DNA from: Sanghuangporus weigelae
Taxonomy: Eukaryota > Basidiomycota > Agaricomycetes > Hymenochaetales > Hymenochaetaceae
Reading direction: 5' to 3'
DNA: 64,000 nucleotides
Assembly: GCA_033182465.1 (NCBI GenBank)
Contig: CP137328.1
Coordinates: 372,001 to 436,000, forward strand
How positions within the stretch are numbered: the first letter of the stretch is position 1; each line of letters begins with the position of its first letter. Below, piece by piece: positions 3,877 through 57,290 of the stretch. A model generated the notes under the pieces. The model was not told where the DNA came from. It saw only the letters and a program-made list of their open reading frames with translations, and did no database searches. Position numbers and translations under genes: made by a program.

Positions 3877-5597
3877 TTACGCATTCACTTCCACACTCCC
3901 TGCATCATAGACAAAATCAGATCTCGCCGACTGTTTAGGAAAGAACGTATATACAAACCTTTGTTGATTACCTGGATCGGCAAAGTCGATCTCACTGACC
4001 GTTCTGGATGAAATATTGTAGCTTGTTCCCTGGTTCTGGCCTCGTTCTCCCGCTTCTTTCAAGTTAAAAAGCATCCGGCTTCTAAGTAACGAGAGCCACG
4101 ACGGGTTTCCAAGCGAAGCTAGAATTACCTCCTGAAAAGAATTCGACATCGGCAGCTTATCATCTATGACGTTGAAAATGGAACACGATATGACGCTATA
4201 TATAGGGCCATAAGTCAGTCGTTCCGCGAGGAGGAGATAACATACAGCATGAAGTACAGGAATTGGTCTTGGATGAGAACCTTGACGAGAGTGAAGCCTT
4301 TGAATCCAGCGGATATCCTCCAATATTCCGCAGCCTTGTATAGAGCAAGGATCATAAGAATGGTTCCATACACCATTGGTATTATCCTGCCTCAGGTTGA
4401 GCAATGTACAATGGCAATGCAGTTCACTCACCAGTCAATCATTACCAATCTCCATGGTGGATCAATGTCCGTACCACAAAACGTCGTATTTTGAGGAAGA
4501 GCCCCAAGCACGACTAGAACAAGTGTGAGTTGTTGGAACATCTATCCTAGAGGAACTTACCACGGTCCAGTTGTACTACATAGATAATCAATCCAAATTT
4601 GATGGCCGCTTCGAGCGCGAGCAATGCTTTCAGGCAAAGTGATAGTGCTGCATCTGCACAATAATGAGCATGGATGCAAACCGAAAGAACTGCATCTGCA
4701 CAATAATGAGCATGGATGCAAACCGAAAGAACTGCATACCTTGAGAGTAAAGAGCAAGGACCCGAATCATGAGGATGTCTTTAATATTAATCAGCTTGAG
4801 CAAAAGAGAAGTATTGACCTGGCACTTGCAGTCCATGAGAATGATAGTGCTCCAATCTAACCAATTACAGTAAGTCGTAGTTTTGGATGACAGACTTCCA
4901 ACACTCACTGATCATATTCTCCGCCCGAAGAGTAACGTAACCTGTAGTTCGTCACCTTTGGTAAAGAATATATTTCAAGCACCTGCCACTTACACCTACC
5001 CGTTTCAATGTTAGCGCCTGTTCAATATCATAACGCTCGGACTCACATTCGCGTACTAATGTCGAATGTGCCTTCTTTATTTCTTGAAATCAGCTTCGCC
5101 GGAAGATACCAGAAGTTAGGTAGCTCACGATAAAGCAGGGATATGGCCCCAAAAATCCCTGCGTATCGATTCTGTTGCACCACCCTTTAGGAATGCACAT
5201 ATCCTAGAAATTTGCCACCCACCACAAAGTAGACGGAGTTGACCATGTTGATTGGGGTTTTCTGTGGTGATTCAGTACTGACATCAGCACATTCGGAAAA
5301 CTAAAAACTTCGTAAACCTACCCAAAAATACCTTGCCTGCAGAATCGAGACAGCCAGTTGAATCGGTGTGCAACTACGTGAAAACAAAATGTAAATATTA
5401 CCTCTTTGTCCAGCATAATGACTATCTTTTGTGTTAATGCTTGACACGAGACAGAAAGTACTACGCTTACGGGCATCGTAAACCAGTATTGTAACGGTTG
5501 CGGTCTGAAGATATTGGATCCGGTACGTCTCGGATAATAGAGGTGCAACTAGGCTGGGATCAACAGGTACAGTGTCAGTCCGAGCAAAAAAGGCCAT
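3877..5597 (-). CDS. DUF6533-like multi-pass membrane protein, paralog 1
   Basis: Belongs to the large, functionally uncharacterised Agaricomycete family of roughly seven-helix membrane proteins with a DUF6533-type N-terminus. The start at 5597 reads MAFFARTDTVPVDPSLVAPL and leads into RIQYLQTATVTILVYDA. After short introns come an IVIMLDKE segment, KTPINMVNSVYFV and NRYAGIFG, which match the charged loop and NRY motif of the family. The last large exon carries LGNPSWLSLLRSRMLFNLKE, the family's C-terminal signature, and ends at 3877. At least seven introns are needed and I could not fix all of them, so whether the gene is intact is open. It lies head-to-tail with paralog 2 at 7263-10026, which suggests local duplication. 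No function is assigned. Confidence 0.7.
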
Positions 5598-7262: not shown

Positions 7263-10026
7263 CTAGTTTGCCCTACTTACATCAAGTTTAGTTGGAGGTA
7301 ATAACGGGAGGGTGAACCGAAGATACCTTTGGTGAGTTCCTAGATTGACAAAATCTATATCGCTTACCGTCCTCGATGGCATACTATAGCTTGTTCCCTC
7401 ATTCTGACCTCTCCTTCCTACACTCTTCAGGTTGAGAAGCATTCGGCTGCCGAGCAGTGAGAGAAACAAAGGATTCCCAAGAGCACTTAAAACGCCTGCG
7501 AGGAAAGGATTCGAAACCTCCAGTCTGAAATTTATGATGCTGAACACGGAGCAGGAAATTACACTGTAGTGTTGGCTTCCGTCAACAAGGTTATTCTAAG
7601 AATAGAGTATAGCAGCACCTTACAGGATAAAGTAGATAACTTGATCTTGGATAAGGACATTAACAAGAGTGAAGCCCCTGAAACCAGCCGATATCCTCCA
7701 ATATTCCGAAGATTTTCGTAGAGCGAGGATCGTAAGCACAGAACCATATACTAATGGGATTGCCCTGCTTCAAGTTGAGCGATCTATCAACTGACTTTGC
7801 AGGCCACTTACCAGTCGACCATTACCCAATGCCACAATGGGATGACATCGGCACCATAAAGCGTGGTCTCCTTTGTGAGTTCTACAATCACCACTCCGAT
7901 GCAAAGTCAGGCTTGGCAGTATTCAATTGCATCCAACTTACAGTGCTTTAATGAGATAAACCACCAATCCTAATTTGAAGGCCGCCTCCATCGCAAGTAA
8001 CGTCTTGAGCCAAACTGATAGTGAAGCACCTACAGTAGACACTAAGATGGCGTCGAGCTTAATCCAGGTCGAAGTTGCCACTGACTTTGATAATATAGAG
8101 CGAGAACTCGTATCATGAGGATATCTTGATTGATAGTAAGTCAATATATTGATAAATACCGATGCATTCTCACAATCCATAAGAATGACGGCGACCCAAG
8201 CTATGCAACAGTCAGCATCTTCTCGAAGAGCACCAGTTCAAATGCGCTTACTAGAAATATTCAAACCCCATATGGAAAAGGTGCCTGTAATACATCATTC
8301 ACCTGAAATACTGAGCTTGGGAGACCGCAACGTACATCTAATCTTTCTGTAAGATCACTTCTTAAATAGACATAGGTTTACAGGACTCATCCCCGAAGGG
8401 AAAGATTGAAGGTTCCCACTACGTAACAGAAACCTAAGTGCATTGACAATGAGTGAAAAATACGCAGCTTACTATACAATTTGATGATTGTTCCAAAAAT
8501 CCCAAAGCATCGATTCCACAAATGCATCTATCACTGAAAACACATTTTTCTCAAGAGTTTGTTCGCTTACTATAAAATAGACAAAGTCGATCATCTTCCT
8601 AGGGACCTTCTGGAAACATCCAGTGATGAGGATCACATTCGCCAAGGAAGCTACTGGTATCGAACTTACCCAAAAATACATCACCTGCACGCTCAAAACG
8701 GTCGATATCAATATGAAGGGACCAGTAGACCATGTGTAAACGTCACCTCTTTATCCATCGTAATCACTGTCCTGGATGAGAATGTTTGGCCTAACACAAT
8801 AGGTGCTGCACGTACTGGCGTCATATACCAAAACAATGACAGTGGCAAACTGGAAGTACTGAGATAGATATAGCTCTGATGTGATAGCTGCGATCTCATT
8901 GGTGACTGTATTATCAGTCACGGCTCGAGTAACTACAGCTAGTTGCAAAATTGTTGGCAATCACGTGATTTCACCACTTTTCTGACATGAGAACCTCAAA
9001 ACACAGATAAAATCATATCTCACCCAAATCTCAACGGTTTCACATCATCTAAGTTGCTAAATTCATCTTTTCGAAAGGGCTTTCGCTTAGGAAAAACGAT
9101 CGAGAAAATAGAGCAAAAAAGGACCCCAAAATGGCGAAAATCTCGTTTTTTGCCTCTTCCTTGCATGTGCATTTTTTTCTGTGATCCCTGCTGGTCCAGC
9201 ACCTCCCCAAAGCTATCCAGAATGATAATATGATTATAAAATGAATTTACAGACTGAGTTTGAGTTGAATTGTGTACCAGAATGTGCTGCTTTGAGGCAT
9301 GCCTGAATCACTCAAAACTCATCATTTCCCCCTAGCCTCCCAGGCTCCAGGAAAAATTCTTACAGGCCAGATTCATGCATGTAAATTCATTTTAGGTATA
9401 ATAGACTAGGTTTGTGCACTAGCTAGGGCCTCAGCATCCACTGGTGAGCTGGGGAGATGCTGTCTAGAATAGTGCATACAACTAGAAACACTTGTTCAGC
9501 CCAGCTCACCAGTGGATGCTGAGGCCCTAGCTAGTGCACAAACCTAGTCTATTATACCTAAAATGAATTTACATGCATGAATCTGGCCTGTAAGAATTTT
9601 TCCTGGAGCCTGGGAGGCTAGGGGGAAATGATGAGTTTTGAGTGATTCAGGCATGCCTCAAAGCAGCACATTCTGGTACACAATTCAACTCAAACTCAGT
9701 CTGTAAATTCATTTTATAATCATATTATCATTCTGGATAGCTTTGGGGAGGTGCTGGACCAGCAGGGATCACAGAAAAAAATGCACATGCAAGGAAGAGG
9801 CAAAAAACGAGATTTTCGCCATTTTGGGGTCCTTTTTTGCTCTATTTTCTCGATCGTTTTTCCTAAGCGAAAGCCCTTTCGAAAAGATGAATTTAGCAAC
9901 TTAGATGATGTGAAACCGTTGAGATTTGGGTGAGATATGATTTTATCTGTGTTTTGAGGTTCTCATGTCAGAAAAGTGGTGAAATCACGTGATTGCCAAC
10001 AATTTTGCAACTAGCTGTAATAGCAT
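7263..10026 (-). pseudogene. DUF6533-like membrane protein, paralog 2, split by a foldback insertion
   Basis: Same family as the gene at 3877-5597. Visible segments are ELYLSQYFQFATVIVLVYDA, a TVITMDKE segment, YFWV spliced to KVPRKMIDFVYFI, NRCFGIFGTIIKLY, and the C-terminal LGNPLFLSLLGSRMLLNLKS, with the stop at 7263. The likely original start codon is at 10026-10024: its first three codons ATG CTA TTA run up to a TA, then the element at 8936-10017 intervenes, and after the second TA the frame continues GTT ACT CGA GCC. Removing the element and one TA gives an unbroken N-terminus MLLVTRAVTDNTVTNEIAAI. No in-frame ATG replaces the lost one before the second exon, and the element carries an in-frame stop just upstream. 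The gene is therefore probably inactive, unless a downstream Met is used. Confidence 0.68.
8936..10017. mobile_element. Foldback/MITE-type DNA element with perfect 518-bp inverted arms
   Basis: Arms 8936-9453 and 9500-10017 are exact reverse complements by eye with no indels, separated by a 46-bp loop. Outer ends read CAGCTAGTTGCAAAATTG, and the element is flanked by TA on both sides (8934-8935 and 10018-10019), the target duplication of Tc1/mariner/pogo-type elements. A CACGTG palindrome sits about 26 bases inside each end. It encodes no transposase; the identical 60-codon open frames in the two arms are mirror images of the same DNA. Complete arm identity suggests a very recent insertion or ongoing arm homogenisation. 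It interrupts the third codon of the DUF6533-like gene. Confidence 0.9.
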
Positions 10027-56234: not shown

Positions 56235-57290
56235 ATGACCCAAACACACTCCCTAAGGTCTCAGCTCGCCTCCCCGGTGAAAAACCAGATTATTGGGGCC
56301 ATTATTGGCGGCAAAAACAAGTCTCAAGCAGCAAAGGCATTTGGCATACCTCGGATGACCGTAAACGACCTTTTTGCACGCTACAAAAAAACCGGTACAA
56401 CAAAAAACTTGCCCCGAACTTGCTGTCCGAAGAAGATCCGTGATCACGACCATCCCCTGCTCATACAAACTGCAAGAAAAACCCGTTTTGCGCCTCTCAA
56501 AACTCTGGCACAAAGTCTCAATGTCAAAGTGAGCCGTCAGACTATCAGACGTGAGCTAAACGCTGCAGGACTCAAGCAGAGGAAGGCCCGACGTGCTCCA
56601 TACGTCAACAAGGCCCATAGGGTCTTACGGCTAGCACGTGTGAAGGAACTGGTGAAGATTACAAAGAGGCAGTTGAAGTCGGTCATTTTCTCAGACGAGT
56701 GCTATGTTTACCTTGGTTCAAACCCTGGCACCATTTATTGTACACGTCGCTCTGATGAAACCTGGCATGAGGACTGCGTTATACCATCCTTTAAGAAGTC
56801 CTCTGTACGTGTTATGGTCTGGGGTTGCATCATGTATGGTAGGAAGGGTCCGCTTATTGTGCTCGAGTATCCCGGGGGCAAGGGAGGAGGAATGACTGCG
56901 AAAAAATATATTGAGCAGGTATTGGATGGCTGTCTTTTGGATTTTTACAATGAGGTCCGTCAACGCAATCGGTCTGTTACATTTCAACAAGACAATGCAT
57001 GGTGCCATACGGCAAAAACGACGCAACGCTGGTTTGAAGAGCATGGCATTTCACTGTTCCCACACCTACCCACTTCTCCAGACATTAACGCTATTGAACC
57101 TTGCTGGTTGGACCTTAAACGGAACATATAGGCCCGTCGTCATCACCCTACATCAGTTGGAGAGCTCAGAAAGGCTGTTCTCGAGGCCTGGGAGGCAATA
57201 CCAATCAATCATATCAATAACTATATTTTATCAGTGCCTCGCCGTGCACAGACAATTATTAATGCTAAAGGTGGACCAACGAAATACTAA
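56235..57290 (+). mobile_element. Tc1/mariner transposase (DD34E) with one in-frame stop
   Basis: Cut-and-paste DNA transposase. The frame from MTQTHSLRSQLASPVKNQII carries an N-terminal helix-turn-helix region (KNKSQAAKAFGIPRMTVNDL and SLNVKVSRQTIRRELNAAGL). The catalytic domain follows: first Asp in VIFSDECYVYLG, second Asp in FQQDNAWCHTA, and Glu in SPDINAIEPCW, with 34 residues between the last two, so it is the Tc1 DD34E type. A TAG at 57129-57131 falls after LKRNI. The same frame stays open for 52 more codons (ARRHHPTSVGELRKAVLEAW ... GGPTKY) to a natural stop at 57288-57290, so the stop removes only the C-terminus. No terminal inverted repeats with TA flanks were found. It is probably inactive or truncated. 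Confidence 0.88.

What the first reader, a model, noticed from the sequence alone, without database searches (positions are those of the whole stretch)
8934..10026. Perfect foldback element inserted in the third codon of a membrane protein gene
The two 518-bp arms are exact reverse complements with no indels, a 46-bp loop and TA at both flanks. Deleting the element and one TA restores ATG CTA TTA GTT ACT CGA in frame with the conserved N-terminus of a DUF6533-like protein. So the pre-insertion allele can be read directly, and the insertion must be young. A 1.08-kb near-palindrome could also form hairpin RNA if read from the gene's promoter and feed small-RNA silencing of the element or gene family; that last step is inference.
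Basis: partly seen in the sequence, partly recalled or inferred. Interest (0 to 1): 0.78.

Follow-up and report, generated by a model that had tools for sequence, protein, structure and literature searches.

The report
Palindromic transposon inside a fungal gene
A 1.08-kb mobile DNA made almost wholly of two mirror-image halves sits in the start of a fungal membrane-protein gene and separates it from its start codon; it belongs to a family of roughly 140 copies whose two halves appear to be copied onto each other.

Summary
Window 8936-10017 is a 1,082-bp fold-back (518-bp arms, 100% complementary, 46-bp loop) flanked by a TA duplication. It belongs to a genome-wide family: 139 forward and 144 reverse places of its end, 0 in the reversed-pattern control. 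Of 47 copies compared, 46 have TA on both sides; 33 of those 46 sit in T-TA-A. The gene claim also holds at sequence level: a tandem paralog has a first exon of the same length, 127 nt, with its Met aligned, and the hand-spliced segment scores over the DUF6533 cut-off. The likely mobiliser is a 12.4-kb Tc1/mariner-type element with the same ends (one mismatch in 28 bp with TA) and a transposase match in each ~2.1-kb inverted repeat; one copy sits inside a fold-back with a TA duplication. One inference weakens: arms within a copy share mirrored substitutions beyond chance (22 of 54 doubletons, 0.58 expected). Arm-to-arm copying is therefore frequent though partial, and perfect arms do not prove a young insertion. 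siRNA silencing is untested; Piwi and RdRP matches exist.

The parts
8934..8935 (.). left TA of the target-site duplication
   Evidence: TA on both sides in 46 of 47 family copies
8936..9453 (+). left arm, 518 bp, begins CAGCTAGTTGCAAAATTG
9454..9499 (+). 46-bp asymmetric loop; 41 bp of it recurs at 43 places with up to 3 mismatches
9500..10017 (-). right arm, exact reverse complement of the left arm
10018..10019 (.). right TA of the target-site duplication; also bases 2-3 of codon 3 (TTA) of the host gene on the minus strand
10018..10026 (-). start codon and codons 2-3 of the DUF6533-family gene, now separated from the rest; the present frame ends after 13 residues inside the element
8816..8933 (-). 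rest of exon 1 (codon 4 onward), 118 nt; with the 9 bases beyond the element the exon is 127 nt, as is exon 1 of the paralog at 5597-5471; both followed by GT donors
   Evidence: hand model, boundaries checked; Met alignment; no transcript evidence
8747..8790 (-). exon 2 (44 nt), hand model
   Evidence: no transcript evidence
7266..7595 (-). 3' region of the gene; 88 aa of its open frame are 57% identical to the paralog
3930..5597 (-). tandem paralog with an uninterrupted first exon, used as the comparison (3' limit approximate)

Best explanation
The feature is a non-autonomous fold-back (MITE-like) DNA transposon. It was moved by a Tc1/mariner-type transposase that recognises the shared ~28-bp ends, and it inserted at a TA (T-TA-A preferred), here in codon 3 of a DUF6533-family membrane-protein gene. 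Shown: family, ends, TA duplication, target preference, interruption of the gene at the sequence level, and a larger transposase-bearing element with the same ends that itself inserted as a 12.4-kb unit with a TA duplication. Inferred: that this transposase moves the fold-backs in trans, and that the gene is null. The arms are kept alike, in part, by arm-to-arm gene conversion (statistical evidence). The route is inferred: cruciform or hairpin repair, or template switching during gap repair after excision.
For: Copies and ends. TA and TTAA: 46 of 47 copies with TA on both sides, 33 of 46 TTAA. Gene: 127-nt exon 1 and aligned Met in the tandem paralog; PF20151 over cut-off; dN 0.29 against dS 1.95 (NG86) over 204 codons of chosen blocks. 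Mobiliser: DDE_3 at 38.4 bits, over cut-off, and HTH_SB (E 6e-6, under its curated cut-off) in L101; ends TACAGCTAATTGCAAAATTGTTGGCAAT against TACAGCTAGTTGCAAAATTGTTGGCAAT; joined flanks of the 12,416-bp element align to the window fold-back over its positions 1-1086 at 92.6%, TA on both sides. Homogenisation: mean within-copy arm divergence 3.67% against 5.59% in random pairing, lowest of 5,000 permutations 4.91%; mirrored transversions 91 observed against 29.5 expected; 22 of 54 doubletons in both arms of one copy against 0.58 expected; 11 of 45 copies with long identical tracts at p<0.01 under a site-rate-weighted null.
Against: No transposition was observed; trans-mobilisation rests on shared ends and TA use. 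Beyond ~28 bp the fold-back and the 12.4-kb element differ, so derivation by internal deletion is not shown. Two of the 47 compared copies (both in L099) share their left flank and have identical left arms, so they are a local duplication and not independent insertions. Ten of the 22 private mirrored sites lie in one divergent copy, L081. The partner is the nearest arm for 30 of 94 arms, and between nearest neighbours one-sided differences (1,098) far outnumber mirrored ones (206), so homogenisation is partial. Polishing of the assembly could copy arms onto each other and cannot be excluded here. The exon model has no transcript support, and at the exon-5 acceptor the paralog's CAG reads TGG in this gene, so I used an upstream AG; the gene may have been imperfect already. 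Unspliced frames missed Pfam.
Confidence: 0.82

Rival explanations
1. The insertion is simply very recent: it derives from a perfectly palindromic source copy and has had no time to diverge; no special conversion is needed for this copy.
For: It is the only one of 47 copies with zero arm differences. The nearest copy, L003, has three one-arm substitutions and a 10-bp one-arm deletion while the window copy has none.
Against: The window arm differs from the L003 right arm at three sites (50, 207, 463), and all three are the same in both arms of each copy, so one of the two lineages was homogenised, or exchanged sequence with other copies, since they separated. The family shows partial conversion tracts. 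Recent insertion and conversion are compatible, so this rival may be true in part. That no stop occurs in the 204 compared codons does not count for youth, because those blocks were picked from open frames.
Confidence: 0.47
2. The element lies in the 5' untranslated region or upstream of a gene whose true start lies downstream, so the gene is not broken.
For: No transcript was available and the 5' end rests on one paralog.
Against: The open frame after the insertion holds no Met in the listed frame 8751-8960. The restored Met aligns with the paralog's Met with 20 residues between Met and SE.Y in both, and exon 1 is 127 nt in both.
Confidence: 0.1
3. The palindrome is an assembly artefact, such as a missed-adapter long read.
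For: Perfect inverted repeats are a known long-read artefact (recalled, no call).
Against: The extracted entries have different sequence on their two sides, 48 distinct left and 48 distinct right flanks among 49, TA duplications, and an asymmetric loop that recurs elsewhere.
Confidence: 0.02

Closest known systems
Tc1/mariner superfamily and its MITEs
   Same: TA duplication; DDE_3 transposase match with a weak Sleeping-Beauty-type HTH match in the larger relative; short shared ends in a non-coding high-copy derivative
   Different: The derivative is 1.08 kb and 96% arm; the larger relative has ~2.1-kb inverted repeats, each with a transposase match, around a long internal region. Typical members have one transposase and short repeats (recalled).
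Galileo, Foldback-like element of Drosophila (PMC3573991, passages read; PMC4168063, passages)
   Same: Long inverted repeats; the two repeats of one copy 98-100% alike; exchange by repair proposed there
   Different: Galileo is classed as a P-superfamily element; here the duplication is TA and the relative is Tc1/mariner-type.
Tetris of Drosophila virilis (PMC4079207, passages read)
   Same: Fold-back element; the internal repeats of two of three complete copies group together, and the authors name homogenisation as possible
   Different: Carries internal 220-bp tandem repeats; different host.
Mammalian sex-chromosome palindromes with arm-to-arm gene conversion (PMC8981503, start of abstract in the listing)
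   Same: Arms kept alike by conversion
   Different: Large chromosomal palindromes, against a dispersed mobile family with arms of about half a kilobase.

Membership tests
Tc1/mariner-type non-autonomous element | TA target-site duplication | tested here: met
   46 of 47 copies TA on both sides; in the other, L004, the right end is changed and the boundary call is shifted
Tc1/mariner-type non-autonomous element | terminal inverted repeats shared with a transposase-bearing element in the same genome | tested here: met
   28 bp including TA with one mismatch shared with the 12.4-kb element
Tc1/mariner-type non-autonomous element | relative encodes a DDE transposase of this superfamily | tested here: met
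   DDE_3 38.4 bits, over its cut-off of 28.6; HTH_SB 26.4 bits, under its cut-off of 43
Tc1/mariner-type non-autonomous element | mobilised by that transposase | not testable with these tools
   needs an excision assay
MITE / fold-back element | no coding capacity, many copies of near-identical length | tested here: met
   no stop-to-stop frame over 95 aa within the element; 47 of 49 entries 1,072-1,089 bp
MITE / fold-back element | short length (usually under ~800 bp for MITEs, recalled) | tested here: not met
   1,082 bp; hence 'fold-back, MITE-like' and not a textbook MITE
DUF6533 (PF20151) host gene | profile score over curated cut-off | tested here: met
   29.9 bits against 24.1 for the hand-spliced segment after the insertion; unspliced frames gave 0 families and the unspliced genome scan did not list the site among its 70 matches

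The most novel reading that the evidence does not exclude
A Tc1/mariner lineage in a fungus in which arm-to-arm conversion shapes both its small and its large members: the small ones stay near-perfect palindromes with mirrored private mutations, and the large ones carry a transposase gene in each ~2.1-kb inverted repeat around a variable interior. Both would be self-repairing mobile elements.
Probability: 0.35. Interest if true: 0.62.

Novelty: new member of a known kind. Interest (0 to 1): 0.42.

Why it matters
The insertion gives a directly readable before-and-after state of a gene. A genome with roughly 140 copies and a transposase-bearing relative makes arm conversion measurable copy by copy.

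Tried and rejected
Pfam on the unspliced frames gave nothing, and the PF20151 genome scan did not list this site. I put both misses down to short exons, since the hand-spliced segment scores over cut-off. That is a partial check, because one search lists only its first 100 places. DDE_3 was followed instead. A piggyBac reading (TTAA sites) was rejected because TA, not TTAA, is duplicated. Age from arm identity alone was rejected. The uniform null for tracts (gaps counted) was replaced by a site-rate-weighted null (gaps not counted): 18 of 47 then 18 of 45 copies below 0.05, 9 then 11 below 0.01. Two of 49 extracted entries were dropped before the arm counts (one nested duplicate, one of 1,237 bp). 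Literature: ten searches (one search was on DUF6533 and transposon insertion, with only 3 of 8,902 listed and no use). No title or start of abstract among the rows listed showed a Tc1/mariner element with a transposase in each long inverted repeat, or this fungal family. Several listings were capped, three papers were read in passages only, and subscription journals are mostly not held.

Full report
What is there. Window 8936-10017 is a 1,082-bp fold-back: two 518-bp arms that are exact reverse complements around a 46-bp loop, with TA on both sides. The window is C11:372001-436000 of a 33.87-Mb genome in 13 contigs. The 70 DUF6533 matches at E up to 0.1 suggest a basidiomycete; that link is recalled, and the species was not determined.

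Family. The 518-bp arm matches 85 places, with only 40 of 222 first-look candidates scored. The 20-nt end including TA is found 139 times forward and 144 times reverse with up to 3 mismatches, against 0 and 0 for the reversed control, which points to about 140 copies. A 41-nt piece of the loop is found at 43 places with up to 3 mismatches, so many copies have a diverged or missing loop. From the loci that could be fetched, 49 two-ended entries were extracted, 47 of them 1,072-1,089 bp long. Two were dropped (one nested duplicate, one of 1,237 bp), leaving 47, of which two (both in L099) share a left flank and are a local duplication. Of the 47, 46 have TA on both sides; in the exception, L004, the right end is changed and the boundary call shifted. 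Of the 46, 33 lie in T-TA-A, 5 in TTAG (the window site among them), 3 in CTAA, 3 in ATAA and 2 in TTAT.

Host gene. On the minus strand the pre-insertion sequence reads ATG CTA TTA GTT ACT CGA. The start codon is at 10026-10024 and the TA duplication falls in codon 3. The present allele reads 13 residues from that ATG and stops inside the element. A tandem paralog runs from 5597 to about 3930 on the same strand. The open frame after the insertion is 49% identical to it over 47 aa (part of that stretch is intron in the hand model), there are 20 residues between Met and SE.Y in both, and exon 1 is 127 nt in both, each followed by a GT donor. Unspliced frames miss Pfam. The hand-spliced 90-aa segment after the insertion scores 29.9 bits for PF20151 (cut-off 24.1) and the paralog segment 46.4. 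Over 204 codons in five ungapped blocks dN is 0.29 and dS 1.95 by NG86 (0.31 and 1.50 by YN00), with 62, 42 and 109 differences at codon positions 1, 2 and 3. The blocks were chosen from open frames and from tblastn matches, so they favour conserved, stop-free stretches; they point to past constraint but say nothing about how long ago the gene broke. Against an otherwise intact gene: at the exon-5 acceptor the paralog's CAG reads TGG here, and my model uses an AG further upstream. No transcript data were available.

Mobiliser. Unpaired copies of the end led to another element sharing 28 bp including TA with one mismatch. On C1 it spans 3791091-3803506, 12,416 bp, with TA on both sides. Its flanks, joined in a script, align to the window fold-back over positions 1-1086 at 92.6% identity with 7 gaps, so it inserted as one unit into a fold-back at a TA. 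Its left part encodes a DDE_3 domain (38.4 bits, over cut-off) and a Sleeping-Beauty-type HTH (26.4 bits, under its cut-off of 43). The two ends are 98.4% identical over the 1,107 bp compared. Twelve pairs of inverted outer matches were listed by eye, with spans of 7 to 31 kb between outer matches; in three of them the left match does not start at the edge of the query, and the two longest may hold nested insertions or be mispaired. That this transposase moves the fold-backs is inferred from shared ends and TA use.

Arm homogenisation. In 47 copies the two arms differ by 3.67% on average, against 5.59% between arms of different copies; 5,000 random pairings never fell below 4.91%. Derived states present in both arms of a copy exceed independence in all three classes: transversions 91 against 29.5, non-CpG transitions 225 against 80.9, CpG transitions 39 against 21.1. 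Subfamily history could inflate those counts, so the cleaner figure is private changes. Of 54 derived states seen in exactly two arms, 22 lie in the two arms of one copy, 0.58 expected; 10 of the 22 are in the divergent copy L081 and 12 in ten other copies. Identical tracts longer than a site-rate-weighted null allows occur in 11 of 45 tested copies at p<0.01 and 18 of 45 at p<0.05, without correction for 45 tests. Results on the other side: the partner is the nearest arm, ties included, for 30 of 94 arms, with a median rank of 7 where about 46 is expected, and between nearest neighbours one-sided differences (1,098) outnumber mirrored ones (206), with 174 others. Conversion is therefore common but partial. 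Substitutions are biased to C>T and G>A, 926 of 1,622 (summed). I cannot exclude that assembly polishing made some arms alike.

What this means for age. The window copy alone of 47 has no arm difference; the 95% upper bound on divergence is 0.58%. Yet it differs from the right arm of its nearest relative L003 at three sites, each identical in both arms of both copies. One of the two lineages was homogenised, or exchanged sequence with other copies, after they separated. A young insertion remains a simple reading, but the arms date only the later of insertion and last conversion.

Silencing. Transcription from the gene's promoter would cross the palindrome (inference). The genome holds 34 Piwi-profile and 19 RdRP-profile matches, which are exon fragments and not gene counts. 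Nothing here tests small RNAs.

Comparison. In passages read, Galileo's two repeats within a copy are 98-100% alike and repair exchange is proposed (PMC3573991), and Tetris repeats group within two of three complete copies (PMC4079207). Within-copy homogenisation of fold-back repeats is thus already suggested in print for Drosophila; here it is tested site by site in a Tc1/mariner-type family. Ten literature searches listed no fungal case of this kind by title or start of abstract, in a library that lacks most subscription journals.

Noticed in passing
L101 and L067/L068 (C1:3791091-3803506), with further inverted pairs listed: Tc1/mariner-type elements (ten of the twelve listed pairs span roughly 7-17 kb) with ~2.1-kb inverted repeats that each carry a transposase match, around an interior with 278- and 321-aa open frames without Pfam matches over cut-off (the C1 copy only).
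   Followed up: partly
window 56931-57149 (+): A separate Tc1-like transposase frame with a DDE_3 match and one TAG in frame; its relation to the fold-back family was not tested.
   Followed up: no
C1:3724000-3846000 (L062-L070): Dense cluster of fold-back copies and Tc1-type elements, some nested in one another; could be centromeric or another repeat-rich region.
   Followed up: no
L021 at 736(-) and L023 at 861(-): Further sequences starting CAGCTAATTGCAAAATTCTTGGGAATTTGG, apparently another element family with similar ends.
   Followed up: no
L058 at 1503: A copy of the end that matches the arm for 41 bp and then runs into unlike sequence, apparently a truncated copy or another element.
   Followed up: no
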